Below, piece by piece: positions 1 to 40,649 of a DNA stretch of 64,000 nucleotides. Below the pieces are notes generated by a model, which saw nothing but the letters and a program-made list of their open reading frames with translations, did not search any database and had not been told where the DNA came from. Both the position numbers and the translations under genes were made by a program. This stretch comes from an uncultured Nitrospira sp. (GTDB taxonomy: Bacteria; Nitrospirota; Nitrospiria; Nitrospirales; Nitrospiraceae): the NCBI GenBank assembly GCA_902500995.1, contig CABVSR010000006.1, positions 110,092 through 174,091 of the forward strand, written 5' to 3'. How positions within the stretch are numbered: the stretch's first letter is position 1; the number at the start of each line of letters is the position of its first letter.

Positions 1-49
1 TCAGTACTATCGCCCCTGACTGACTCAGTTCAACCCGCTTCATTCTTGA

Positions 50-25871: not shown

Positions 25872-26393
25872 TCAGGAGGGAGGATTCTCGGAGACCACCG
25901 GGCTGTGCTCCGGCTCTTTCTCCAGCGCAAAGTGGAGGATCAAAAACACCACTCCCACCGTAATGGCCGAGTCAGCCACATTAAACGCGGGCCAGTGGTA
26001 TCCGTTGATATAAAAATCGAGGAAATCGATCACTTCGCCGTAACGCAGCCGGTCCAATAGGTTTCCGATCGCTCCGCCCAGAATCCCCGCGACGCTCAAT
26101 CGCCCCATCCAGTCATCTTTCGGCATGCGCACCATGATCATGCCCAGCAAGCCCACCGCGAAGACCGAGGTCAGGCCGAAGAAGACAAACCTGAACGAGC
26201 TGCTGCTGGTGGAGAGAAAGCCGAAGGCCGCGCCGGGATTGCGAATGTAGGTGATGCTGAACAGATTGGTGATGACGGGAATGGATTCATGGAGCCGCAT
26301 GGTCTCCATGACGTAGACCTTGGTGACTTGATCCAATACGACGATCACCAGGCTCAGCAGCCCGAGCAGAAGATAACGGATGGCTGGGCTCAC
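25872..26393 (-). CDS. lspA: Lipoprotein signal peptidase (signal peptidase II)
   Basis: Inner-membrane aspartyl protease that cleaves prolipoproteins after lipidation. The 173-residue protein has four hydrophobic helices and the catalytic-Asp motifs GGAIGNLLDRL and FNVADSAITVG, plus the YIRNPGAAFGF block. It starts at a GTG at 26393 that overlaps the ileS stop codon as GTGA, indicating translational coupling. ileS-lspA pairing is widespread. Many lipoproteins in this window are its expected substrates. Confidence 0.96.
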   Translation of the reverse strand: MSPAIRYLLLGLLSLVIVVLDQVTKVYVMETMRLHESIPVITNLFSITYIRNPGAAFGFLSTSSSSFRFVFFGLTSVFAVGLLGMIMVRMPKDDWMGRLSVAGILGGAIGNLLDRLRYGEVIDFLDFYINGYHWPAFNVADSAITVGVVFLILHFALEKEPEHSPVVSENPPS

Positions 26394-29209
26394 CGGACAG
26401 CCTCGAGGCAACGGTCGCAGAGGGTCGGATGCTCCGCCGAGGCGCCCACAGCCGACCGATAATTCCAGCAGCGCTCGCACTTCGCCCCGGTCGCCTTCTC
26501 AACCGTAATCGCAAACCCGGCGCTTTCCGGCACTTGAGCCACCGCCTTGAGAACGACTTCCGACACGATAAAGAATGACGGCAGATCCTGGCCGTAGGGT
26601 TTCAAGAATTCGTATTGGCCGGCATCGGCTTCGATGATGACCCGCGCCTCCAACGGCGCGCCGATCACCTTGTCGCGTCGCTTCACTTCGAGCGCCGCCT
26701 GGACCGCCACTCGTACATCAAGCAGCCGCTCCCACCGCTCAGCCAACTTCGGATCGGCCCAGCGCGGATCGGCCTCGGGGAACATGGCGATATGGACGCT
26801 GTCGGCCTTCGCCTCCGCTCGTACGCTCTCCGGCAACGTCCGCCAAATCTCCTCGGCGGTAAAACTCAGCACCGGCGCCATCAATTTGGTCAGGGCCACG
26901 ACAATCTCGAACAGCACCGTCTGCGAGCCGCGCCGGAGCGGAGAATCCTTCCGGAACGTGTAGAGCCGATCCTTCAAAATATCGAGATACACGGCGCTCA
27001 GATCGACGGAACAAAAATTGTTCAAGGCGTGAAAGATCGTGTGGAATTCAAAGTCGTCATACCCCTTCCGCACGCGCGGGATCAGATCGCTCAGTCGCAT
27101 GAGCGCCCAGCGGTCTAATTCAGGCAACTGCTCGAACGGCACCCGATGCTGCGCCGGATCGAAATCGTAGAGATTGCTCAGCAGGAAGCGGCAGGTATTG
27201 CGAATCTTTCGATAGGCTTCGATCAGATGATTCAGGATCTCCTGGGAGATCCGAAGGTCTTCGCGATAGTCCTGAGCCGAGACCCACAACCGGAGGATTT
27301 CCGCACCGGATTGTTTGATGACATCCTGCGGCGCCACGACGTTACCGGCCGACTTGGACATTTTCCGTCCCGCCCCGTCCAACACGAAGCCATGCGTCAG
27401 CACCGCCTTGTACGGCGCCTGCCGGTCCGTGATCACGCCGGACAAGAGGGCGCTATGAAACCAGCCGCGATGCTGGTCGGAGCCTTCCAGATAGAGATCC
27501 GCCGGATACCATTGACGTGGTTTGAGCACGGCCGCGTAACTCACGCCGGACTCGAACCACACGTCCAGGATGTCGCGTTCCTTTTCGAATTCGGTCCCGC
27601 CGCATCCTTCGCATTGAGTGCCCTGAGGAAGCAGCGAGGCGGCCTGGTTAGCAAACCAGTAGTCGGTCCCATGCTGCCCGATCAAGTCCGCCACATGATC
27701 AATCACACGAGGGTGGGCCAGCACCTTGCCGCACGATACGCAGGTAAAGCCGGGAATCGGCGTGCCCCAGACCCGTTGACGTGACAGACACCAATCGGGC
27801 CGGTTTTCGATCATCCCATTGATGCGGTCGCGGCCATAGGCCGGAATCCAGCGCACCCGGTCGATCTCCGCCAACGCTTCTTTTCGCAGCTCATTCGTCT
27901 CCATGGAGACGAACCACTGCTCCGTTGCGCGAAAGATGACGGGACTCTTACAGCGCCAGCAATGGGGGTAGGAGTGATTCAGCGAGCCGTGGCCAACCAG
28001 CCGACCGTTTTCCTTCAGGCGCTCCACGATCTTCGGATTAGCCTTGAAGACATGCTGCCCGGCAAATTCCGGCACGGCCTCGGTGAATTTCCCGCCATTG
28101 TCCACCGGCGCCAGGATTTCGAGCCGCTCTCCGACGCTGGCCTTGGCATTGTGATCCAGCACCAGCAGATAGTCTTCCATGCCATGGCCCGGCGCGATGT
28201 GCACGCAACCGGTTCCCTGCTCCAAGGTCACGAAGTCGCCGAGGAGAATCGGCGAAAGACCCGTGCTCAGCGGGCGTTGCGTCTCCAATCCCTCAAATCC
28301 CTCACGGCCTTTCTTGACTGCGACGATCGTATATGTCGGCAGGTTGCAGGCCTTGGCCACCGACTCGACCAGCTTCTCAGCCATCACCAGCAATTCGTCG
28401 CCGACCAGCACAAAGGCATAGTCGATGTCGGCATGCAGGCAGACCGCCTGGTTGGCCGGCAAGGTCCATGGCGTCGTCGTCCAGATCAGCACCGACGCGC
28501 TGGTCGCTTCGACAGGGAATGAAACCAATCCGAACCTCTTGCTCAACACCGAGGGCGGACTCACGAGCGGAAATTTCACATAGACCGACGGCGACGTGTG
28601 GTCGTCGTATTCCACCTCCGCCTCTGCCAAGGCCGTCTGGTCTTGCGTGCACCACAAGACCGGCTTCAAGCCTTTGTAGACGCCCCCGCGCTCCACAAAC
28701 CGGCCGAACTCGCGGATGATGGTGCCTTCATAGGCCGGGTTCAAGGTGAGATAAGGCTCTGGCCATTCACCCAGCACGCCCAGGCGTTGGAATTCCTCCC
28801 GCTGAATCGCCACATACTTCTCCGCATATTCCTTACAAAGCTTGCGGATCGCGAGCGCGTCCAAATCCCGCTTCTTGTCTCCCAGTTCTTTCAAGACCTG
28901 ATGCTCGATCGGCAAACCATGGCAATCCCAGCCCGGCACATACGGGACGTGATAGCCCGACATGGTCTTCGATTTGACGATGATATCTTTCAGAATTTTG
29001 TTGAGGGCGTGCCCGATGTGGATCCGCCCGTTCGCATAGGGCGGCCCGTCGTGGAGAATGTATTGTTCACGCCCCCGGCGGGATTCCTGAATCCGTTCGT
29101 AGAGCTTGTCCTGCGCCCAGCGGGCCAGCATCTCCGGCTCCCGCTGCGGCAAGTTCGCCTTCATCGGGAAGTCGGTCTTCGGCAAATTGAGGGTTGATTT
29201 ATAGTCCAT
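26390..29209 (-). CDS. ileS: Isoleucyl-tRNA synthetase
   Basis: Class Ia aminoacyl-tRNA synthetase charging tRNA-Ile. The 939-residue protein has HIGH at residues 64-67, a CP1 editing domain (about 190-400), KMSKS in the segment GAGRKMSKSAGN, an anticodon-binding domain and the C-terminal zinc knuckle CERCWNYRS...CDRCLEA. This is the bacterial-type IleRS. It is coupled to lspA through a 4-base overlap. Repeat copy A lies between it and nadA upstream. Confidence 0.98.
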   Translation of the reverse strand: MDYKSTLNLPKTDFPMKANLPQREPEMLARWAQDKLYERIQESRRGREQYILHDGPPYANGRIHIGHALNKILKDIIVKSKTMSGYHVPYVPGWDCHGLPIEHQVLKELGDKKRDLDALAIRKLCKEYAEKYVAIQREEFQRLGVLGEWPEPYLTLNPAYEGTIIREFGRFVERGGVYKGLKPVLWCTQDQTALAEAEVEYDDHTSPSVYVKFPLVSPPSVLSKRFGLVSFPVEATSASVLIWTTTPWTLPANQAVCLHADIDYAFVLVGDELLVMAEKLVESVAKACNLPTYTIVAVKKGREGFEGLETQRPLSTGLSPILLGDFVTLEQGTGCVHIAPGHGMEDYLLVLDHNAKASVGERLEILAPVDNGGKFTEAVPEFAGQHVFKANPKIVERLKENGRLVGHGSLNHSYPHCWRCKSPVIFRATEQWFVSMETNELRKEALAEIDRVRWIPAYGRDRINGMIENRPDWCLSRQRVWGTPIPGFTCVSCGKVLAHPRVIDHVADLIGQHGTDYWFANQAASLLPQGTQCEGCGGTEFEKERDILDVWFESGVSYAAVLKPRQWYPADLYLEGSDQHRGWFHSALLSGVITDRQAPYKAVLTHGFVLDGAGRKMSKSAGNVVAPQDVIKQSGAEILRLWVSAQDYREDLRISQEILNHLIEAYRKIRNTCRFLLSNLYDFDPAQHRVPFEQLPELDRWALMRLSDLIPRVRKGYDDFEFHTIFHALNNFCSVDLSAVYLDILKDRLYTFRKDSPLRRGSQTVLFEIVVALTKLMAPVLSFTAEEIWRTLPESVRAEAKADSVHIAMFPEADPRWADPKLAERWERLLDVRVAVQAALEVKRRDKVIGAPLEARVIIEADAGQYEFLKPYGQDLPSFFIVSEVVLKAVAQVPESAGFAITVEKATGAKCERCWNYRSAVGASAEHPTLCDRCLEAVR

Positions 29210-29375
29210 GGTACTTACGCTGTCGGCGAAGAGCCTTCAGCGATCAGCATATCAAGAGGTTGCGAGCTTCGTCTTCGGTGATCTGGTGGAATATACCGGA
29301 AGGAAGCGAGGGGAACCAGTGGTTTGTTAGCGGCCGAAGGCATTAACAAGGTGACTGGCAGGATTTGGCTGTCTT

Positions 29376-29501
29376 GCAAGCTGTTCAGAAAGGTCGTCCG
29401 GTAAGGCCGCAGCGAGGAAGCATGTGAGGCGTACCCTCAGCGGTACGTTGAACATGCGAGCGACGCGAGAACGCCGCCGGCGGCCTTTCTCAACAGCTTG
29501 C
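29376..29501 (+). repeat. Dispersed structured palindromic repeat, copy A
   Basis: A ~125-bp imperfect palindrome. The outer 18-base arms (29376-29393 and 29484-29501) are complementary at 17 positions. It contains AGGCCGCAG and GAGGCGTAC, shared by all four copies, and an inner hairpin from GCATGT to ACATGC with a GTACC/GGTAC tip. It abuts the nadA stop codon and precedes ileS. Related copies lie at 36852-36972, 37804-37928 and (inverted) 39987-40110. Confidence 0.85.
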
Positions 29502-30604
29502 TAACTGAGCGCCATCATGCGGTCCAACGCTACCTTCGCCAATTGCTTTTCGTCGTCCGGAACGACGATCCGGTTGACGACATGGCCGTCGGCGAGATTT
29601 TCCAGCGCCCAGCAGAGGTGCGGGGCATCGATGCGGTACATCGTGGCGCATTGACAGACCGTGGAAGAAAGGAAAAACACCTTCTTGTCCGTCTGCTCAT
29701 GCTTCAGGCGATTGACGAGGTTGAGTTCCGTACCGACGGCCCAGGTGGTGCCAGCCGGTGCCGCCGTAATCGTGCGGATGATGTATTCCGTCGAGCCTAC
29801 GAGGTCGGCTTTGTTCACCACATCTTCATGGCATTCTGGATGCACAATCACCTTCACCTCGGGGTGCTGCTTGCGGAAATAGTCCACGTGGGACGGCTGA
29901 AACATCTGGTGCACACTGCAATGGCCCTTCCACAGGATCAACTTCGCCCGCTGAATGGCCTCCACAGAATTGCCGCCACGCGGCATGTAGGGATCCCAGA
30001 CGATCATCTGCTCGCGCGGGATGCCCATTTTATTCGCCGTGTTCCGGCCCAGGTGCTCATCGGGGAAAAACAGGATCTTCTCGCGCCGCGCCCAGCTCCA
30101 TTCAATGACCTTCCGCGCGTTCGACGAGGTGCAGGTCAGTCCGCCATGTTCGCCGCAAAAAGCCTTGAGGATTGCGGCGGAGTTCACGTAGACCGCCGGC
30201 ATCACCGTTTCTTCCACCGGCACCACCCGGCCCAGCGCATCCCAGCACTGTTCCACCTGTTCAATCGCCGCCATGTCGGCCATGGAGCAGCCGGCAGCCA
30301 TGTCGGGAAGAATGACAGTTTGATTGGACCGGCTCAGCACATCGGCGGTTTCAGCCATGAAGTGCACGCCGCAGAAGACCACATAGGGACGATCGGAACG
30401 CTGCTCGGCGACTTGCGCCAGAATGAGAGAATCGCCGCGGAAATCGGCATGTTGAATGACTTCATCACGCTGGTAGTTATGACCGAGCACCATGACCTGG
30501 TCGCCCAACCGGCGTTTGGCCGCACGGGTGCGCTCGAAGAGTTCTTCGGCAGACAGAGCTTGATAGTCGGTAATGGGACGGGGAAGCGTGGCGACCGTTT
30601 TCAC
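29501..30604 (-). CDS. nadA: Quinolinate synthase
   Basis: [4Fe-4S] enzyme that condenses iminoaspartate with dihydroxyacetone phosphate to quinolinate in NAD biosynthesis. The 367-residue protein shows VLGHNYQRDEV, the cluster-Cys regions VFCGVHFMAETAD, TCTSSNARK and SSTVCQCATMYRID, and HPECHEDV. The start is the GTG at 30604, 8 bases after AAAGG; an upstream in-frame GTG (30679) lies above the predicted -10 box. nadB and nadC were not seen nearby. Confidence 0.96.
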   Translation of the reverse strand: MKTVATLPRPITDYQALSAEELFERTRAAKRRLGDQVMVLGHNYQRDEVIQHADFRGDSLILAQVAEQRSDRPYVVFCGVHFMAETADVLSRSNQTVILPDMAAGCSMADMAAIEQVEQCWDALGRVVPVEETVMPAVYVNSAAILKAFCGEHGGLTCTSSNARKVIEWSWARREKILFFPDEHLGRNTANKMGIPREQMIVWDPYMPRGGNSVEAIQRAKLILWKGHCSVHQMFQPSHVDYFRKQHPEVKVIVHPECHEDVVNKADLVGSTEYIIRTITAAPAGTTWAVGTELNLVNRLKHEQTDKKVFFLSSTVCQCATMYRIDAPHLCWALENLADGHVVNRIVVPDDEKQLAKVALDRMMALS

Positions 30605-30659
30605 CTGCAGCCTTTCGGTTGATTCAAAAACTAGACCACGAGGGAACTTACACCCTGAG

Positions 30660-30689
30660 ATTTTACGACACCCTGTCACGGGTACGCAA
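30660..30689 (-). promoter_or_regulatory. Possible promoter of nadA
   Basis: On the minus strand, TTGCGT (30689-30684), an 18-base spacer and TAAAAT (30665-30660). It predicts a leader of about 50 bases before the GTG at 30604. Confidence 0.4.
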
Positions 30690-30950
30690 TGAAATGAGTC
30701 GACGCAGATGGCCTACGAAGAATGGCGGGATGGGTCAAAGGGGAAGGAGAAGCCGGTGTCTAGCAGGTAATTGATCCGGCACGGACACCTGCATGAGCGC
30801 CCGGCTCTGTGCTGGTAACGGGAGTATTAGCGCTCGTCTTTGCCATTATCCTCCGCACACTGAACACCAGGCTCGCGCAACAAGGCATGTAACATCTCAG
30901 CCTTCGTGGCATACGCCCGCAGCGCATTCAGCGACAGCAAATGTGTGAAC
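30690..30950 (+). other. Intergenic region without a recognised gene
   Basis: With the nadA leader, this makes a 346-base gap between nadA and the cytochrome gene. On the minus strand a 42-codon open stretch (about 30950-30828) reads like protein, ending ALLREPGVQCAEDNGKDER, but has no convincing start or ribosome site. It may be a gene remnant. No tRNA or repeat was seen. Confidence 0.3.
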
Positions 30951-31547
30951 CTATCGCCCCAGCGGAATGCTGAGCACAATCCCTCCCATCACGTCCTGCG
31001 GCTTGAAATCCTTCTTTGGGCTATTCGGGTGGGCATTGTGGCAGCCGACACAGGATTGCGACGCAGCTTTGTCTGCGTAGATGGCTTGAAACACCGGGGG
31101 GCCGCCGTCGCTTGTGACTGCCGTGTAGGGCTGATCGGGATTGACCAGAATTTCTGTGAGGCCGGCTCGCTCGAAGTCGGTCCTTGGCCGGTTCTTGGCA
31201 TTGATCGCCCAGTTGCTGATCAGCCGGTATTGCAGGCCGCTACGCCCCGCTGCCACGAGCCGCCCGGTTTCCAACAAATATTGAGCCGGCAGAGGAAGCC
31301 GCGAGGTCTCTCGCCAGTTTTCGGCGGCGAAGGCGATCCCCCGCATCTGCATCCGCTCGACAATATCCGTGGTGTAAAACGTGCGATCGGCCTGAATGAC
31401 GCTATGCAGATACTCCGCCACCGCCGCGGCGGGAATACAGCCGGAGGGGTCGGTGTCTTTACTTGCGGCGGCAGGCCCCCACTGGCCGAGAATCCCCATC
31501 CCGCTCACTCCCAGAAAGAGCCCAAGCCAAAACCCTCTTGTGTTCAT
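30951..31547 (-). CDS. Secreted monoheme cytochrome c with DUF3365 (Tll0287-like) domain
   Basis: A 198-residue exported protein. A signal peptide (about 1-28, ending AAASKD) precedes a Tll0287-like/DUF3365 sensor-type domain, with one haem c motif CVGCHNAHPNSP near residue 165. The start at 31547 follows GGAGG by 6 bases. Related domains occur as periplasmic redox or haem sensors and in cytochromes of nitrite- and iron-oxidising bacteria; the role here is unknown. It stands alone between nadA and the metallopeptidase unit. Confidence 0.8.
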   Translation of the reverse strand: MNTRGFWLGLFLGVSGMGILGQWGPAAASKDTDPSGCIPAAAVAEYLHSVIQADRTFYTTDIVERMQMRGIAFAAENWRETSRLPLPAQYLLETGRLVAAGRSGLQYRLISNWAINAKNRPRTDFERAGLTEILVNPDQPYTAVTSDGGPPVFQAIYADKAASQSCVGCHNAHPNSPKKDFKPQDVMGGIVLSIPLGR

Positions 31548-31682
31548 GAGGTGCCTCCGTTTCTCTGAGCGCAGTCCGTCATGCACCCAAGAAAAAATCT
31601 TACACCTGTCGATCCGGCAACGCGAGCGCCGGCGGACCGAGGCCTCAGGGCATCGGTCCGCTGACGCACCTATCCGTCCGGC

Positions 31683-33935
31683 CTAGCGAGGGACCGGCTC
31701 CTGCTCTTTCAGGCTGGACAGGGCCTCTTTGATGACCCGCATGGTGTGCTCGACATCACCGATCTTTTCTCGCTTGGCATCTCGCCGGACATCGCGGGGT
31801 TCTTTCTTCAGGACCGCTCCATGCTCCACCAGGGCCGCTCTGAACCGGCCGAGATAATATTCATAATCGGTGCGGCCCAAAGTCGCGATGGCCTGGTCTT
31901 TTTTCTCGAGTAACGCGCTCGTATAGAGCTGCCGCGCTTCTTCAATATGAGGCGCCGCGCGGCGGAGACGGCCGCCGGCTTCCTTGGCGGACGCCATTTC
32001 TCCCATGCGGTCGCCCATGTCGAGCACCTTGTAGTCTTTTGCCAGCGGCGCAGCCAAGGCCACGCGCGCATGATAGGCTACCGCACGATCGCCGAACCGG
32101 TCGCTCACTTCGCGGAGCGTATCGTTGCCTCCGCGGAGTACGGCACTCCCGTCGAAATTGAGGATCCGGCCGACCTCATCGGAAAAGAAATCCTGCGCGA
32201 CGAATTCCTCATCGTACCCGCGGGGTGGGGCGACACGAATGGTCAACGCGTCAGAAACAATGTCTTCCGTCTCCATATGGAGGGCGATTTGGATGGTGTA
32301 GTAGCCCGGTTCGGCGATGTCCCACCCGTTTCGTCCCACGGAAATGAACAGCGAATCGGTGACGAACTCGCCGGGCATGACCACTTGCGCCTGCATGTTA
32401 TGGCAATAGCGCGCAAAGGGCAGATACTGGCGAGCCGGCTTATCCCGCTTCTTGACGATGACGGTCATATGATCCGCCATGGACAACAATTCCTTCTCCA
32501 GCACCAGCGGTCGCGGTCCGATATTGGTCAGCTGGAGTTCGAGCACGACCGGCTCGAGAAACTGGTAGGTGGCTTGTGCCCGTTCGACTCGAAGGTTGAG
32601 CTTCAGCGACGGCTCCGGTGAGCTGCTCGCCTGCTCGAAACCATGGTGATCGAACCAATCGGCATTCCCCATCTGCACAAACCGCTCCGGCGCATGGCGC
32701 ATGAATACCAACTCGTTGTCGCTGAAGCGGTAGCCGAAGTCGGAGAAAAATGCCGTCTGCCCGCCCGACACGTTGTACGGATAATTCATGAAGCTGCGAG
32801 CCTCCGGCTCATTGGCCAAGGGAATCCAGGGCGTGCCCCAGTCCGGGGGGTGCTGCTTCTGCCAGGAATGCGCCAGGTTGAAGGCGTGCCCCATTTCATG
32901 GCAGGCCGTCCAGAACCGCATCCGCTCGACCCACGCAACCGGCTTGGCATCGCCGGTCGGCGCCGTGGAGATGAACGAGTCATTGAAAATCGCCGTGCCC
33001 TGACGATGGTTCGGCCCGATATCGTCGAACATGATGCCGCCCAGGTTTGTGCCTTGTTCGTGCAGCTTGGCGAAAAACACCCAGAGAGACCACTGCGCCT
33101 TGCCCGCAAATCGCGACCAGTACACCTGCATGGCATCGTGCATTTCGTTGTCGCTCCAACGCGCATTCGTGCCCGCATCGCCGATGGGCACGATGGTATC
33201 GCTCCCCGATTTCCGTACGTCGAACCCGACCCTCCGGTAGACCTCCTCGATCGAGAGCGTTTCGTTCGGCAAGGTGGCCGGACGATTCGGGTGGTCATGC
33301 GTGCCGATTTTCGTGGTGGCCGTGACTGCGGTCGCGCAGTCAAACTCAAATTCGACCGACCGGAAATAGGGTGATTTGAACGCCAGCGTTCTGGTGCGGA
33401 CCGACGTGCCGCCGCCCGACAGTCGAACCACGGCTCTGCGCTGGCTGGAGAGAAAGGTTGCCGTTGTGGTGATGTCGACCGTCGTGTAGGGGAACCCTGC
33501 GACATCGCCATCCTTAAACCAGATCGAACCGGTCCAGGCGTTCGGCCCGGATGCGGTGAGACGGGCAATCCAGTGCACACGTTTGGCCAGCACCCCGTAC
33601 AGTGTTCCGCTGGCCATCATCTGCGGATACCGCCCATCGACATCGAGGCGCAGTTCTTCGCGAAGCAGGCCCCAGGGAAGCAGTTCCTCAATTTGCCAGG
33701 GAGCGGCTGATGTGGGCACCATGCCCGGCAGCGGCTGAGGAATCGGAACGGGCTGAATCGGCAAGGGGCCAGGGGCGGGAATGGGCGGCGTCACGATCCT
33801 CGATGCCACATACAGCCCGCTCACCCGGATGCGCGGCGGCCAAGGGATAATCGGGAGAAGAGGCTCTATGCCGGGACGAGCCGCTTCGGATGCTTCGGCG
33901 AGAGACTCCTGATCAATGTGGTCATGCTCTTTCAT
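31683..33935 (-). CDS. Large zinc metallopeptidase-like protein (metzincin-type HExxHxxxxxH)
   Basis: A 750-residue protein. A Pro-rich N-terminus (about 25-75) is followed by a beta-rich region and a peptidase-like segment with HEMGHAFNLAH at residues 346-356. That has the metzincin spacing of three zinc-binding His, with Glu347 as the general base. C-terminal to this is an immunoglobulin-like beta domain (about 430-540) and a helical tail (about 590-750). No clear signal peptide is visible, so location is uncertain. The start at 33935 has GGAGGCAGAGC upstream. It follows a 99-residue partner gene by 59 bases. Function unknown; peptidase activity is inferred from the motif. Confidence 0.75.
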   Translation of the reverse strand: MKEHDHIDQESLAEASEAARPGIEPLLPIIPWPPRIRVSGLYVASRIVTPPIPAPGPLPIQPVPIPQPLPGMVPTSAAPWQIEELLPWGLLREELRLDVDGRYPQMMASGTLYGVLAKRVHWIARLTASGPNAWTGSIWFKDGDVAGFPYTTVDITTTATFLSSQRRAVVRLSGGGTSVRTRTLAFKSPYFRSVEFEFDCATAVTATTKIGTHDHPNRPATLPNETLSIEEVYRRVGFDVRKSGSDTIVPIGDAGTNARWSDNEMHDAMQVYWSRFAGKAQWSLWVFFAKLHEQGTNLGGIMFDDIGPNHRQGTAIFNDSFISTAPTGDAKPVAWVERMRFWTACHEMGHAFNLAHSWQKQHPPDWGTPWIPLANEPEARSFMNYPYNVSGGQTAFFSDFGYRFSDNELVFMRHAPERFVQMGNADWFDHHGFEQASSSPEPSLKLNLRVERAQATYQFLEPVVLELQLTNIGPRPLVLEKELLSMADHMTVIVKKRDKPARQYLPFARYCHNMQAQVVMPGEFVTDSLFISVGRNGWDIAEPGYYTIQIALHMETEDIVSDALTIRVAPPRGYDEEFVAQDFFSDEVGRILNFDGSAVLRGGNDTLREVSDRFGDRAVAYHARVALAAPLAKDYKVLDMGDRMGEMASAKEAGGRLRRAAPHIEEARQLYTSALLEKKDQAIATLGRTDYEYYLGRFRAALVEHGAVLKKEPRDVRRDAKREKIGDVEHTMRVIKEALSSLKEQEPVPR

Positions 33936-33994
33936 GCTCTGCCTCCTGTTGTGAGAAGCCACGACCGTCATGCGGCACCGATCCGGAACGCCTC

Positions 33995-34294
33995 TCACAG
34001 GTATCCGAAGGGTTCGTGTGAGAGCTTCCAGACCACTTCCCCTTCCATCGTGAGGGACAGGCCGACATAGGTCGGACGATCCACCGACACCGATTTGCGT
34101 TGAGTCACCCCCCGCTTGCTCAACACCACCTCCACCATGACCGGGCTGCGCGTCACATCGAGGTCCACGGAACCGGCATATCCGGTTTGTCGACGCGTAG
34201 TGACATCGCCATTCGCCAATGCCTCCCGAGCATCCACCAGCACGCGCACCTCGTCATGATGGAAGCCCTCCTGAAGAGCAATGTGCAGCAACAC
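33995..34294 (-). CDS. Small beta-rich hypothetical protein upstream of the metallopeptidase
   Basis: A 99-residue acidic/neutral protein starting at a GTG with GAGGTG upstream. The alternating hydrophobic pattern (VEVVLSKRG, KSVSVDRPTYVGLSLTM) suggests a small beta-sandwich. No signal peptide and no recognised family. It is the first gene of a two-gene unit with the metallopeptidase, so it could be a cofactor, inhibitor or chaperone; this is inference from position only. Confidence 0.65.
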   Translation of the reverse strand: MLLHIALQEGFHHDEVRVLVDAREALANGDVTTRRQTGYAGSVDLDVTRSPVMVEVVLSKRGVTQRKSVSVDRPTYVGLSLTMEGEVVWKLSHEPFGYL

Positions 34295-34523
34295 GATTCA
34301 CCTCGTCCGGATCGTTGCCATGGGGCGGTTGCAGGGAAGTGCTCCAACAGGTTCTCTAGAGCAAGCCGTATACCGCAGCTGACAGCAGCGCATTCAGCGG
34401 GTGCCAAAAGAAAGCACGTATTTGGAAGTCTGTGAAATACGGCGCGTCCGGCTCACCGCCTGGGAGCGGCGACACACATACCTCTCGAAGATGCGGAAGA
34501 GCGGCGGCGGCGCGGCATCTGTT

Positions 34524-34565
34524 CTCGTATCCGATACGATACGAGATCGGTATCTGATGCGATAC
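34524..34565. promoter_or_regulatory. Cluster of GATAC/GTATC palindromes, possible operator
   Basis: Five copies of GATAC or its complement lie within 42 bases. CTCGTATC (34524-34531) pairs with GATACGAG (34538-34545), and GATAC-N7-GTATC spans 34538-34554. It lies about 180 bases upstream of the TPP riboswitch in a gene-poor gap. The function is inferred only. Confidence 0.4.
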
Positions 34566-34597
34566 AAGCGCGCAGTGCTTCCCCCCGCATCCTCAGA

Positions 34598-34626
34598 ATC
34601 ATTCTGCGTCAGCATCATTCTGCGTC
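34598..34626. repeat. Tandem 13-bp direct repeat upstream of the TPP riboswitch
   Basis: ATCATTCTGCGTC occurs at 34598-34610 and again at 34614-34626, 16 bases apart (about 1.5 helix turns). It could be paired binding sites. The remainder of the 34295-34743 gap shows no convincing gene. Confidence 0.5.
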
Positions 34627-34709
34627 GTCGCTCTTGACGGTACGGTCTCTTCAGAACTCGACTCCCCGTCCGAGAGGGCCTTCCATCACTGGGCCTTCCA
34701 GCGCATTGA

Positions 34710-36851
<2,142 letters not shown>

Positions 36852-36972
36852 GGCTGGTCAAAATGGCTGCCCAGCGAGGCCGCAGGCGAATCCAAACCGG
36901 AGGCGTACCCTCAGGGGTGCGTTGAGGATTTGATGAAGCCGAGCACGAAGCCGGGAGTCATATTCAGCAGCC
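36852..36972 (+). repeat. Dispersed structured palindromic repeat, copy B
   Basis: Starts at the base after the thiC stop. It carries AGGCCGCAG and GAGGCGTAC and an inner hairpin closed by AATCC/GGATT with CGTACC/GGTGCG. The outer arms begin GGCTG and end CAGCC. The arms differ from other copies but remain largely complementary. It lies between thiC and thi4, so it is probably transcribed. Confidence 0.8.
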
Positions 36973-36990
36973 GCTGAGAGGAAAGAGAGT

Positions 36991-37791
36991 ATGGGGAAGC
37001 CAAAGCCGGCACCGTTACGCGAGCGCGATATCACCCGCCAGATTGCACGGGAATACTATAAAGAATTCGATCAGCTGATCGAGAGCGATGTCATCATCGT
37101 CGGCGCCGGCCCTTCAGGGTTGATCTGCGCCCACGATCTCGCCAGGATGGGTGTGAAGACCCTGATCGTCGAACAAAGCCTGGCCTTGGGCGGCGGATTC
37201 TGGTCCGGCGGCTACCTCATGAACAAGGCCACGATCTGCGCTCCGGCCCACAAGATCCTCAAAGAAGTGGGTGTGCCCTGTAAGCCGATCAAAGAATGTC
37301 CCGGCATGTACATGGTCGATCCTCCGCACGCGACGGGCGCGCTGATCGCGGCGGCCTATGATGCGGGGGCGAAGATCATGAATCTGACGCGCGTCGTCGA
37401 TCTGATTTTACGCCGCGAAGGCGTGCTCGAAGGGGTCGTGGTCAATAGCACCACCGCCGAAATGGCCGGGCACGATATTATCCATGTCGATCCCATCGCA
37501 TTAGAGAGTAAGATAGTCGTTGACGCCACCGGGCATGATGCGGTGGTGGTGAACCTTCTCCATAAACGAGGGCTGTACCAGCAGGTTCCGGGCAACGGCG
37601 CCATGTGGGTGTCGCGATCGGAAGAGGAAGTCATGGATCGGACCGGGGAAGTCTCTCCCAATTGCTTCGTGATCGGACTAGCCGTTGCAGCGGTGTTCGG
37701 CACGCCACGCATGGGCCCGGCCTTCGGCTCGATGTTGCTCTCAGGCCGGTACGGCGCGGAGCTGATTCACAAGAAATTGAAGAGTCGGTAA
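36991..37791 (+). CDS. thi4: Thiamine thiazole synthase, Thi4 family, His (sulfide-dependent) type
   Basis: Builds the ADP-thiazole precursor of thiamine from NAD and glycine. The 266-residue protein has a Rossmann GAGPSGL motif (residues 38-44), a GGGFWSGG loop, and a C-terminal TPRMGPAFGSMLLSG segment. Where eukaryotic suicidal Thi4 has the sulfur-donor Cys before a DP pair, this protein reads HVDP, with His165. That matches archaeal-type enzymes that use free sulfide catalytically. It replaces thiG/thiO-type thiazole synthesis and follows thiC under the riboswitch; GAGAGGAAAGAGAG precedes the ATG. Confidence 0.93.
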   Translation: MGKPKPAPLRERDITRQIAREYYKEFDQLIESDVIIVGAGPSGLICAHDLARMGVKTLIVEQSLALGGGFWSGGYLMNKATICAPAHKILKEVGVPCKPIKECPGMYMVDPPHATGALIAAAYDAGAKIMNLTRVVDLILRREGVLEGVVVNSTTAEMAGHDIIHVDPIALESKIVVDATGHDAVVVNLLHKRGLYQQVPGNGAMWVSRSEEEVMDRTGEVSPNCFVIGLAVAAVFGTPRMGPAFGSMLLSGRYGAELIHKKLKSR

Positions 37792-37803
37792 CTCACACTA
37801 CCC

Positions 37804-37928
37804 TGCGGCTTCTCAAACGGGTTGCCGGCAAGGCCGCAGGAAGCGAAATCGACGAGGCGTACTGCATGAGTACGTCGAATCGATTGAGCGACCGAGAACG
37901 CAGCCGGCGACCCGTTTCAGAAGCCGCA
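37804..37928 (+). repeat. Dispersed structured palindromic repeat, copy C
   Basis: The best-preserved copy. The 26-base outer arms (37804-37829 and 37903-37928) pair with one mismatch and one G-U wobble. It has AGGCCGCAG, GAGGCGTAC and GAGCGA, with an inner hairpin AATCGA/TCGATT and CGTACT/AGTACG. It begins 13 bases after the thi4 stop. Its right arm ends one base before the ATG of the next gene. Confidence 0.85.
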
Positions 37929-37929
37929 T

Positions 37930-38445
37930 ATGGATGTCCAAGATTTTCTCATACAGGGCGACGGCAGCGAGGAAGACAAGCGCGAAGCCTGGCAACTGTT
38001 TCAGCAAGCCTACGAACAGCAGATGAAGGGGCAGTTGGAAGAAGCCGTCAGCCTGTACAAACTGTCACTGGCGACCCATCAGACGGCTGAAGCCTATACC
38101 TTTCTCGGCTGGACCTATAGTTTCATGGGCAAGCTGGACGAAGCGATCGAGGAATGCCATAAGGCGATTGCCTGCGATCCGCACTTCGGCAATCCCTACA
38201 ACGACATCGGCGCCTATTTGATCGAAAAGGGCGACCTGGACGAGGCGATCCCCTGGTTTCAAAGGGCGATGCAGGCCAGACGGTATGAAAGCCCGGCGTT
38301 CCCGCATCTGAACCTGGGACGCGTCTACGAACGCCAAGGCAAGTGGAGCGAGGCCATCGACTGCTACAAGCAAGCCCTGGCCCTCAATCCGGATTATGCT
38401 CTGGCGAAGAAAGCGCTGGGCCGCCTGATCAGCTCACTGAACTAG
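37930..38445 (+). CDS. Tetratricopeptide-repeat protein
   Basis: A 171-residue soluble protein made largely of four TPR-type helix pairs (about 30-165; for example EAYTFLGWTYSFMGKLDEAIEECHKAI and PHLNLGRVYERQGKWSEAIDCYKQAL). TPR arrays mediate protein contacts; the partner is unknown. The ATG lies one base after repeat copy C and has no normal ribosome site, so translation may depend on repeat folding. Followed by a receiver-like gene and a YgfZ-like gene. Confidence 0.85.
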   Translation: MDVQDFLIQGDGSEEDKREAWQLFQQAYEQQMKGQLEEAVSLYKLSLATHQTAEAYTFLGWTYSFMGKLDEAIEECHKAIACDPHFGNPYNDIGAYLIEKGDLDEAIPWFQRAMQARRYESPAFPHLNLGRVYERQGKWSEAIDCYKQALALNPDYALAKKALGRLISSLN

Positions 38446-38460
38446 ATCGATCGATTTTCG

Positions 38461-38874
38461 ATGAATACCACCATCCTCGTGGCCGTCACCGACATTTTCT
38501 TTTACACCAAGATCCGGGACGCTTTGCGCCCGCAAGGGTATACCTTGGAACGCATTCGTCACCAAGAGGACGTGGCAGACAAGACGGCTTCGGCAGATCC
38601 AGCCGCCCTGATCTTGAACATGAACGACCTCGCGGTAGATGCCTTCCAGGCCCTGGAAACCATCCAGCGTCATCCCACCCTGCGCGCACTGCCCATCCTG
38701 GCCTTCGCCAATCACGAAGAAGTCGACACCTGGCGCCGAGCCAAGGAGCTCGGGGTCACCAAGATTGTTTCGAGAAACGAGTTCTCGGCCCGCACGAGAG
38801 AGCTCGTCGAAGAATTGATCACGAACCGCGGCCGGCAAGCAGCCGCCGGCTCTGAGCTGAACGCCGACCGCTGA
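38461..38874 (+). CDS. Degenerate response-regulator receiver-like protein
   Basis: A 137-residue single-domain protein with receiver-like alternation (TTILVAVTD...AALILNMND...LPILAFANHEEVD...VTKIVSRNEF). The phospho-acceptor Asp position after strand 3 is LILNMND (no LD), and the conserved Thr/Ser and Lys positions are also replaced. It is therefore probably a phosphorylation-independent pseudo-receiver. It lies between the TPR gene and the YgfZ-like gene; no ribosome site is obvious. Confidence 0.7.
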   Translation: MNTTILVAVTDIFFYTKIRDALRPQGYTLERIRHQEDVADKTASADPAALILNMNDLAVDAFQALETIQRHPTLRALPILAFANHEEVDTWRRAKELGVTKIVSRNEFSARTRELVEELITNRGRQAAAGSELNADR

Positions 38875-38894
38875 CAGAAGAAAGCACAAGCCCG

Positions 38895-39986
38895 ATGAAA
38901 CAGTCTCGCCTCCATGACCAACACCAGCAACTCGGCGCCACATTCGAAGACGTCACGGGATGGTCCGTGCCAGCGCGATATGGCGACGTCACCGCGGAAC
39001 ATGCCGCCGTGCGGAACGCTGTCGGATTGTCGGACTTGTCACAGCGCGGAAAGATTCGAGTGACCGGCGATGACCGCATCAAGTGGCTCCAGAGCATCAT
39101 CAGCAACGATATCCTCCCGCTTGAGCCTGGGCAGGGCCGCTACTCCAGCTTCCTCACCCATAAGGGAAAAATGCTCGGCTATTTCCGGGTGTACATCCAA
39201 AGCGAGGCGGTCTGGATCGAGGATGTCGGTGAAGTCGGAGAGGCCACGTTTCAGGCGCTCCGAAAGTTTCTTCTCTACGGCACCAAAGCCAAGATGGAAA
39301 ATTGCGCGGACAGTTGGGGCTTGCTGCTCGTGAGCGGGCCGAAATCCGCGGAGGTAATGGAAGCGGCATTCGGCGTCAAGGTCCAGACCTTACAACTTCT
39401 CCAGACCATCTCTACCACCATCGACGGCCACTCAGCCCTGATCATGCGCACAGAAGAAACGGGCGAACAGGATCTGGAAATCCTTCTGCCTGCTGATGGC
39501 CTTCAGGCGGCATGGAGCCGGCTCATGACTGCAGGCGCTCCGGTCGGCATCAAACCCGTGGGTTCTCAAGCACGTGAACTGTTGCGGATCGAAGCAGGGC
39601 TTCCCAAGGCCGGACCCGATTTGAACGAGGAAATTGTTCCGCCGGAAGCCAACTTGGAAGACAAGGCCTTCAGCCTTTCAAAGGGTTGTTACCCGGGGCA
39701 GGAAGTGGTGGCGCGGATGGACACCTACGGAAACGTTCGCCGGCATCTGGTGGGGTTGGTGATCCAGGATCAGACAGTTCCGGCACGGGGATCGAAGCTA
39801 TTCAGCGGAGATCGGGAAGTAGGATGGATCAGCAGCGCCGTCTTCTCACCGCAGCGCAATGCCGTCCTGGCATTCGGCTTTCCGCTACGCGACTTTTCTG
39901 CGCCGAATACCGAGCTGAGCGTGGAAGCGGCAGGGACGCGCCATCAGGCAATCGTCCATGCCCTTCCGTTCTACGTTCGCTCTTAG
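38895..39986 (+). CDS. ygfZ: YgfZ/GcvT-like folate-binding protein (Fe-S maturation)
   Basis: A 363-residue aminomethyltransferase-fold protein. It has the YgfZ signature KGCYPGQEVVARMDTYGNV (K-G-C-Y-x-G-Q-E) near residue 263 and a C-terminal barrel domain. YgfZ/COG0354 proteins bind folate and assist repair or maturation of Fe-S enzymes such as MiaB; they are not glycine-cleavage T proteins. ThiC and NadA, both Fe-S enzymes, are encoded nearby. Followed at once by repeat copy D. Confidence 0.88.
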   Translation: MKQSRLHDQHQQLGATFEDVTGWSVPARYGDVTAEHAAVRNAVGLSDLSQRGKIRVTGDDRIKWLQSIISNDILPLEPGQGRYSSFLTHKGKMLGYFRVYIQSEAVWIEDVGEVGEATFQALRKFLLYGTKAKMENCADSWGLLLVSGPKSAEVMEAAFGVKVQTLQLLQTISTTIDGHSALIMRTEETGEQDLEILLPADGLQAAWSRLMTAGAPVGIKPVGSQARELLRIEAGLPKAGPDLNEEIVPPEANLEDKAFSLSKGCYPGQEVVARMDTYGNVRRHLVGLVIQDQTVPARGSKLFSGDREVGWISSAVFSPQRNAVLAFGFPLRDFSAPNTELSVEAAGTRHQAIVHALPFYVRS

Positions 39987-40110
39987 CAGGATACTGAAAA
40001 CACCCGCCAGCAGCATTCTCGCATCGCTCAGGGCCTCAACGTACCCCCGAAGGTACGCCTCAGCCCTTCACTTGCTGCGGCCTTGCTGGACGGCCATTTT
40101 GACTATCCTG
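39987..40110 (-). repeat. Dispersed structured palindromic repeat, copy D (inverted)
   Basis: On the minus strand it reads like copies A-C, with AGGCCGCAG, GAGGCGTAC and GTACGTTGAG. The outer arms start CAGGATA and end TATCCTG, with an inner hairpin closed by a TACC/GGTA tip. It begins at the base after the ygfZ-like stop, in the gap between convergent genes. Confidence 0.8.
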
Positions 40111-40166
40111 CGGGGATCTCAATCACGAAAACCAGTCGTCACCGTTTTGTGATCTGGCAGCAATAT

Positions 40167-40649
40167 CTATTTTTCGGGATTGCGCACAGCCGATACGGCG
40201 GAGGCGAATCCGAGCAGGCTCCTCCGTTCCTCATCGTCCAAGGCCAGCAACAGATGGGTTTCTTCGGCATGCATCAGCCGGAGGCTCAAGAACGGTTCCT
40301 CACGGCGCTTTTCCCGGTTGTCCCACATGGCGTCGATCACTTGCACCTTGTCCAACTGCCCGACCGAGACGACATCGTAGCGGAAATAGGAATCGCCGAT
40401 CACGATATCGAAAATGACATTCCCGACCGTCAAGAGGATGAGATTGAACCGTCCCTGATCTTCGTATCCTTCGGGCAAAAACTTGTTGATATGGCACCGC
40501 GCGACCTTGCGATCGCCGAGGGCAGCGCGAAACTTGACCTGCAACGCTTCGTAATCGATCTGGAGCGCCTTTTCATCCGCGCTGGTCGCCCCGACCGCCG
40601 CATTTTTCGCCTGTTCAAACACGTCATCCGCCGACAACAACCCTGCCAT
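40167..40649 (-). CDS. Conserved-looking hypothetical protein
   Basis: A 160-residue soluble protein without signal peptide or recognised domain. A helical N-terminus (about 1-50, with ADEKALQIDYEALQVKFRAALGDRK) is followed by a beta-rich centre (FNLILLTVGNVIFDIVIGD) and a Leu-rich C-terminal helix. A GGAGTAGG ribosome site lies about 10 bases before the ATG. Convergent with the ygfZ-like gene. Confidence 0.65.
   Translation of the reverse strand: MAGLLSADDVFEQAKNAAVGATSADEKALQIDYEALQVKFRAALGDRKVARCHINKFLPEGYEDQGRFNLILLTVGNVIFDIVIGDSYFRYDVVSVGQLDKVQVIDAMWDNREKRREEPFLSLRLMHAEETHLLLALDDEERRSLLGFASAVSAVRNPEK

What the first reader, a model, noticed from the sequence alone, without database searches (positions are those of the whole stretch)
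29376..40110. Dispersed ~125-bp structured repeat family with covarying arms
Four copies (29376-29501, 36852-36972, 37804-37928, inverted 39987-40110) share AGGCCGCAG, GAGGCGTAC and a GTACGTTGA-like block, but their outer arms differ. In each copy the arms still pair: 17 of 18 in A, 24 of 26 plus a wobble in C. Inner stems also change together (GCATGT/ACATGC, AATCC/GGATT, AATCGA/TCGATT). This covariation argues for selection on a folded RNA or single-stranded DNA. Every copy abuts or closely follows (0-13 bases) a stop codon, in either orientation.
Basis: seen in the sequence. Interest (0 to 1): 0.75.

Follow-up and report, generated by a model that had tools for sequence, protein, structure and literature searches.

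The report
Jumping DNA hairpin beside stop codons
The four repeats belong to a family of about 127-letter hairpins with around a hundred members in this Nitrospira genome and relatives across its order; most of those examined sit beside a gene's stop codon, and they are likely the tail of a small jumping element that would be moved by another element's transposase.

Summary
All four copies match one covariance model, which gives 102 hits in the window's own genome and hits in 41 of 41 Nitrospirales genomes searched, own included. The arms covary well beyond shuffled and slid controls.

The interpretation changes. Identical recent copies in two other Nitrospira genomes show the hairpin as the right end of a ~200-bp non-autonomous mobile unit. 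The left end of the unit carries the terminal repeat of a complete IS5-family insertion sequence, and 13 of 13 such units are flanked by a matching CTAG or CTAA. An orthologous empty site has a single CTAA, which is a gene's stop. In older copies the hairpin's right end is flush with the stop of an opposite-strand gene: 116 of the 133 with a gene facing that way.

The folded strand is one particular strand, with invariant tandem G·A pairs. Compensation is strong between copies and weaker in copies compared at one orthologous place. What the fold does is inferred.

Closest known kinds: MITEs, ERIC, REP. Verdict: new variant of a known kind.

The parts
29375..29502 (+). hairpin copy A; right end at the stop codon of the minus-strand ORF 29501-30679 (nadA by recall)
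   Evidence: 128.4 bits; RNA MFE z -8.3; bases
29501..29503 (-). stop codon TAG met by the right end of copy A
   Evidence: ORF list, bases
36848..36976 (+). hairpin copy B, directly after the stop of the ORF ending 36851 (thiC by recall); weak fold, decayed copy
   Evidence: 96.4 bits; z -2.4; orthologous hairpins at this slot
36849..36851 (+). stop codon TGA met by the left end of copy B
37803..37929 (+). hairpin copy C, 12 bases after the stop of the ORF ending 37791 (thi4 by recall)
   Evidence: 110.5 bits; z -10.2
37789..37791 (+). stop codon TAA upstream of copy C
39985..40112 (-). hairpin copy D, inverted; right end flush with the stop of the plus-strand ORF ending 39986
   Evidence: 125.6 bits; z -6.4; short hairpin-free orthologous slots
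39984..39986 (+). stop codon TAG met by the right end of copy D

Best explanation
The repeats are copies of a 127-base imperfect hairpin that forms the right end of a roughly 200-base mobile unit without a gene of its own, likely moved in trans by an IS5-family transposase and duplicating a 4-base YTAR target that is often a gene's stop codon. Shown: the unit, its paired ends, the duplication and one precise empty site in relatives. Shown: an IS5-family element with the same terminal repeat in one of those genomes. Inferred: that this transposase moves the unit. Inferred: that copies with only the hairpin, like the four in the window, are mostly old units whose left part has decayed; 27% of 190 still show the left repeat. 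Inferred: that the fold matters mainly while the element spreads, as a hairpin of one DNA strand at the transposing end, and is only loosely kept afterwards. A landing flush behind a stop codon leaves the protein unchanged, which would explain why copies survive there.
For: Mobility: 8 and 5 copies with identical hairpins in two genomes share a ~200-bp unit and no outer flank; 13 of 13 have the same CTAG or CTAA on both sides. Of 29 units found by a rule that asks for YTAR on both sides, 28 have equal 4-mers. Empty site: CTAA-unit-CTAA against a single CTAA, the stop of the gene, in the relative at 93% identity. Partner: a 1316-bp element with TTAG on both sides, repeats CAGGCTGCGGAAAAACTC / ...ACGC and an intact transposase ORF, NF033581 transpos_IS5_4 at 278.9 bits, cut-off 140; 15 of 29 units carry the same 18 bases, most of the rest 1-2 changes. 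Target: IS5 of E. coli duplicates 4 bp with consensus C(A/T)A(G/A) (PMC11677980, passage seen). Stops: 116 of 133 right ends with an opposite-strand gene facing them lie within -12..20 of its stop, 73 of them at exactly -2; TAG 69, TAA 37, TGA 10; only 21.6% of non-coding YTAR sites are stops. Left repeat 72-76 bp upstream: score>=0 in 27.4% of 190 hairpins against 1.5% of control stretches. Fold.
Against: Only one element with the matching repeat was found, in one genome, and the transposase was not tested on the unit; it had no other close relative in the loci held. 73% of hairpins show no left repeat, and among 49 hairpin-only copies with YTAR at the right only 5 have the same 4-mer at the expected left place, against 0-3 in seven control windows, so decay from units is plausible, not shown. 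IS5-type transposases act on double-stranded ends (recalled), so a single-strand role is not expected. Orientation: the right end is at the stop 19 to 7 in units and 94 to 22 in hairpin-only copies, which insertion at a near-palindromic YTAR does not explain by itself. Resident copies are not free of constraint: slot B has 29 compensated cells against 12.5 shuffled (0 of 500 reach it), slot C1 6 against 2.3 (4 of 500), slot A 79 against 32.4 (0 of 500); slots C2 and D are not significant. No significant strand bias with respect to replication (9 to 18, p 0.12).
Confidence: 0.68

Rival explanations
1. Mobile or resident bidirectional transcription terminator: the hairpin is kept because an A-run, G+C-rich stem and T-run can end transcription from both sides behind genes.
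For: A-run>=4 in the 5' arm and T-run>=4 in the 3' arm in 161 of 198 each, opposite polarity in 1 and 0 of 198. Convergent gene pairs 45 of 178 against 71 of 526 ordinary gaps, divergent 14 of 178 against 93 of 526. Right-end-at-stop orientation is more skewed in older copies. Other species fill slot C with unrelated inverted repeats. Some compensation at slots A, B, C1.
Against: The simple terminator scan flags none of the four copies, though its rule allows loops of 3-8 only. The T-run lies inside the stem. The better-folding strand is antisense to the gene that the right end abuts. Resident copies at B, C and D have 155 broken against 43 compensated cells, and slot D is hairpin-free and only 20-28 bases long in about eleven of 29 genomes.
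Confidence: 0.3
2. The arms match because of copying errors, not selection: template switching or gene conversion turns near-palindromes into better palindromes.
For: At slot B one species (L308) has an inner left arm that is almost the exact complement of its right arm, with the usual G.A steps gone. Slot A shows inner blocks swapped between copies with outer arms kept, and L322 with unmatched arms (read by eye).
Against: Such correction would remove mismatches, yet C.C is kept in 116 and GA/GA in 121 of 124 copies, and two G.T pairs are near-invariant. G.T exceeds A.C 154 to 39. The second module alternates between GA/GA and Watson-Crick.
Confidence: 0.12
3. REP-like element moved as single-stranded DNA by a RAYT (Y1) transposase, which would give fixed orientation beside a short target and no duplication for the hairpin-only copies.
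For: Strand-specific fold with conserved mismatches; oriented right ends at TAR without a left duplication in most hairpin-only copies.
Against: No Y1_Tnp match in eight same-genus genomes with 39 to at least 85 hairpins, the own genome included. Intact units have duplications and IS5-type ends. Replication-strand bias not significant.
Confidence: 0.1

Closest known systems
[quoted passage not shown] RUP of pneumococcus
   Same: Short, non-coding, dispersed, terminal repeats shared with a full insertion sequence, target duplication; RUP's link to IS630-Spn1 also rests on repeat and target similarity (PMC2229807, passages seen).
   Different: One end is a 127-base structured hairpin with conserved non-Watson-Crick pairs; IS5-type YTAR target; copies flush with stop codons.
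ERIC / IRU
   Same: 127-bp intergenic imperfect palindrome, transcribed with neighbours, orientation matters (PMC2229807, passages seen).
   Different: Unrelated host group; here the hairpin is one end of a longer unit, with tandem GA modules. I made no sequence comparison with ERIC beyond the Rfam scan.
REP elements
   Same: Hairpins near the 3' ends of genes; REPs within 15 nt of a stop are reported to stall ribosomes (PMC12306157, passages seen).
   Different: Much longer; no RAYT gene in several carriers; IS5-type duplications in intact units.
IS5 (E. coli) and IS5-family transposases
   Same: 4-bp duplication of the CTAG/CTAA type (PMC11677980, passages); the partner's transposase passes the NF033581 cut-off.
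   Different: The unit has no transposase and carries a hairpin end that the partner element lacks.

Membership tests
MITE of an IS5-family element | terminal inverted repeats shared with an autonomous element in the same genome | tested here: met
   G024: element L278 and units L216-L220; unit left repeats match the element's 18 bases exactly (L216) or with one change (L217-L220); the right end matches less well (CAGGATGCGGAAAAAGTC)
MITE of an IS5-family element | target-site duplication of the partner's type | tested here: met
   13 of 13 recent units CTAG/CTAA; partner TTAG/TTAG; empty site CTAA
MITE of an IS5-family element | movement by that transposase | not testable with these tools
   needs a transposition assay
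MITE of an IS5-family element | hairpin-only copies derive from such units | tested here: inconclusive
   left repeat in 27.4% of 190, none seen in the rest; weak 4-mer test
REP / RAYT system | a Y1 (RAYT) transposase in the carrier genome | tested here: not met
   0 matches in the own genome and in seven other same-genus carriers with 39-76 hairpin hits
known Rfam RNA family | match to a covariance model | tested here: not met
   only the TPP riboswitch in the window; no other match at E<=1 in 29300-40200
intrinsic terminator | stem followed by an exposed T-run | tested here: inconclusive
   T-run conserved but inside the stem; scan rule does not fit long hairpins

The most novel reading that the evidence does not exclude
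A stop-codon-homing mobile hairpin: the folded top strand, with its ladder of tandem G.A pairs, is itself a working part of the transposing end, and the element spreads across a whole bacterial order by landing in TAA/TAG stops in a preferred orientation, leaving each protein intact and giving the gene a ready-made 3' structure.
Probability: 0.18. Interest if true: 0.8.

Novelty: new variant of a known kind. Interest (0 to 1): 0.52.

Why it matters
The family is abundant in nitrite-oxidising Nitrospira and present across its order, so it shapes gene ends in many genomes and no Rfam family covers it. It gives a clean comparative case for asking whether a conserved fold in a small mobile element serves the element or the host: recent units, empty sites and old orthologous copies are all available. 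It also shows how a 4-base target rule can make gene stops a safe landing place.

Tried and rejected
Rfam scan: only a TPP riboswitch. A text search for core letters in papers returned 670 papers, the 20 listed being unrelated by title and abstract. Searches for a published description gave none on this family in the listings: Nitrospira + palindromic + intergenic repeat, 0 papers; Nitrospira + miniature inverted-repeat transposable, 2; Nitrospira + repetitive extragenic palindromic, 5, of which RepRanger lists N. moscoviensis in a table (passages); Nitrospira + palindromic repeats + insertion sequence, 6; two searches on stop-codon insertion and terminators. Only this open library was searched. 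IS200/RAYT partner rejected as general mover. PF01609 search: other matches in G000, G014 and G004 showed no matching repeat by my pattern in the loci looked at. Viral contigs: the strict pattern has no match. Replication-strand bias: not significant. I first read as 'no excess of compensation in place'; a proper shuffle control showed an excess at slots A, B and C1, and the claim was softened. Dropping L308 does not remove the excess at B (25 against 10.8).

Rows dropped: 2 of 200 pasted hits as same site; hits below about 84 bits, cut-off ones and reverse-strand doubles were not pasted. In one search, 7 of 198 hits lay in loci without gene calls, 11 were at edges, 2 overlapped ORFs. In some searches, 7 of 76 reverse-strand doubles were left out. 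Alignments A3 and A4 are fitted to the model and A3 was chosen by E<=1e-18, which leans towards pairing. Gene calls come from a simple hexamer script of my own, not a standard gene finder.

Full report
Observation. The four copies are real and lie where stated. Three fold far better than shuffled sequence; B only marginally (z -2.4). A covariance model built from 27 copies of the own genome gives 102 hits there, one of them the reverse strand of another.

Host and spread. The window lies in G000 (3.97 Mb, 56 contigs). A same-genus genome, G008, has a contig of the same length with the model hit at the same place as CABVRO010000108.1, an uncultured Nitrospira, so the genus is taken as Nitrospira. 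All 41 genomes searched have hits: 2 to at least 85 in the genus (85 is the scoring cap of that search), 1 to 82 in the 16 others of the order. The strict pattern has no match in viral contigs. In three other families of the order the core, the A- and T-runs and, in several loci, a right end at an opposite-strand stop recur.

It is the end of a mobile unit. G014 has eight and G024 five copies with identical hairpins. They share about 80 bp to the left and nothing to the right. The shared stretch of about 200 bp runs from CAGG(C/T)TGCGGAAAAAC to CCTG, and in 13 of 13 the bases outside are CTAG on both sides or CTAA on both sides. A wider pattern that asks for YTAR at both ends found 29 such units, 28 with equal 4-mers. 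In G024 one unit has CTAA on both sides where the closest relative has a single CTAA, the stop codon of the gene there, and matching sequence continues on both sides. A second unit is consistent but its relatives are more diverged.

Likely mover. G024 also has a 1316-bp insertion sequence with TTAG on both sides, near-identical inverted ends and a transposase that passes the NCBIfam cut-off for IS5 family. Its left 18 bases equal the left end of 15 of 29 units. E. coli IS5 duplicates a 4-bp C(A/T)A(G/A) target (PMC11677980, passages). That this transposase moves the units is inferred.

Place beside genes. With a simple gene caller, 178 of 198 hairpins had both neighbours called. In 133 a gene on the opposite strand ends towards the hairpin's right end; in 116 its stop lies within -12..20 of that end, in 73 at exactly -2. 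Stops are TAG 69, TAA 37, TGA 10. Only 269 of 1245 non-coding YTAR sites are stops. Units recognisable by their left repeat have the stop at the right end 19 times, the left end 7, neither 14; hairpin-only copies 94, 22 and 30, with 8 counted on both sides. Strict two-sided units gave 9, 6 and 14. So landing at stops is seen early and the orientation skew is stronger in older-looking copies. In the window A and D follow the main mode; B and C lie in sense orientation behind their genes.

Orthologous slots. Slot B (ORFs ending 36851 and starting 36991) carries a hairpin in 21 aligned genomes; G004 has a 24-base gap there. Slot C holds one of two different hairpins, an unrelated inverted repeat or nothing. 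Slot D is filled in eleven genomes including the own, 20 to 28 bases long with no hairpin in about eleven, and remnant, expanded or unrelated in the rest of the 29. Slot A shows swapped inner blocks and, in L322, unmatched arms (by eye).

The fold. Between copies: 548 compensated and 135 one-side-broken cells; shuffling gives 129.5 compensated. G.T exceeds A.C 154 to 39, and the same strand folds better in 190 of 198. GA/GA flanks the apical stem in 121 of 124; a second such step is GA/GA in 67 and Watson-Crick in at least 41; a third is GA/GA in 82; C.C is kept in 116. A single folded strand is therefore under selection; RNA and DNA cannot be told apart. In copies compared at one place the picture is weaker: B+C+D 43 compensated to 155 broken, G.T to A.C 72 to 42. 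But compensation still exceeds shuffles at B (29 v 12.5) and C1 (6 v 2.3), and at A where blocks are swapped (79 v 32.4), not at C2 (1 v 0.4) or D (7 v 3.9). Shuffles ignore relatedness, so these are upper readings. The fold thus seems kept mainly in the spreading lineage, with some constraint in place.

What it most likely does. I read it as a MITE-like unit whose structured right end works during movement, probably as a hairpin of one DNA strand; copies landing in TAA/TAG stops do no harm and stay. The terminator rival fits the A- and T-runs and the excess of convergent gaps and is not excluded. Template switching has one clear example (L308) but does not explain conserved mismatches. A RAYT route lacks the gene in eight carriers.

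Novelty. No Rfam family matches and the listed paper searches showed no description. It is a new variant of the MITE/ERIC/REP kind.

Noticed in passing
window 34739-34841 +: TPP riboswitch upstream of the ORF 34875-36851 (64.3 bits, gathering 54.3).
   Followed up: no
L001, L007, L318, L325, L336, L340: A roughly 45-base insert beginning TTCTTACCCGCCC and ending in a short G+C-rich inverted repeat sits in the apical loop of hairpins in several species, as if a second tiny element targets the loop.
   Followed up: no
window about 29288-29328: A stretch around GAACCAGTGGTTTGTT upstream of the minus-strand ORF 26390-29209 is strongly conserved in most orthologous gaps printed; possibly a leader or promoter.
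   Followed up: no
G000:C34:5094-5484, C39:71-327, C15:96503-96767: Head-to-tail arrays of two or three hairpins a few bases apart.
   Followed up: no
G004: This same-genus complete genome has only 2 hairpin hits but 14 identical-scoring copies of another DDE_Tnp_1 element.
   Followed up: no
L122, L195: Hairpins in contigs binned as Phycisphaerae and Deltaproteobacteria; either transfer or binning error.
   Followed up: no
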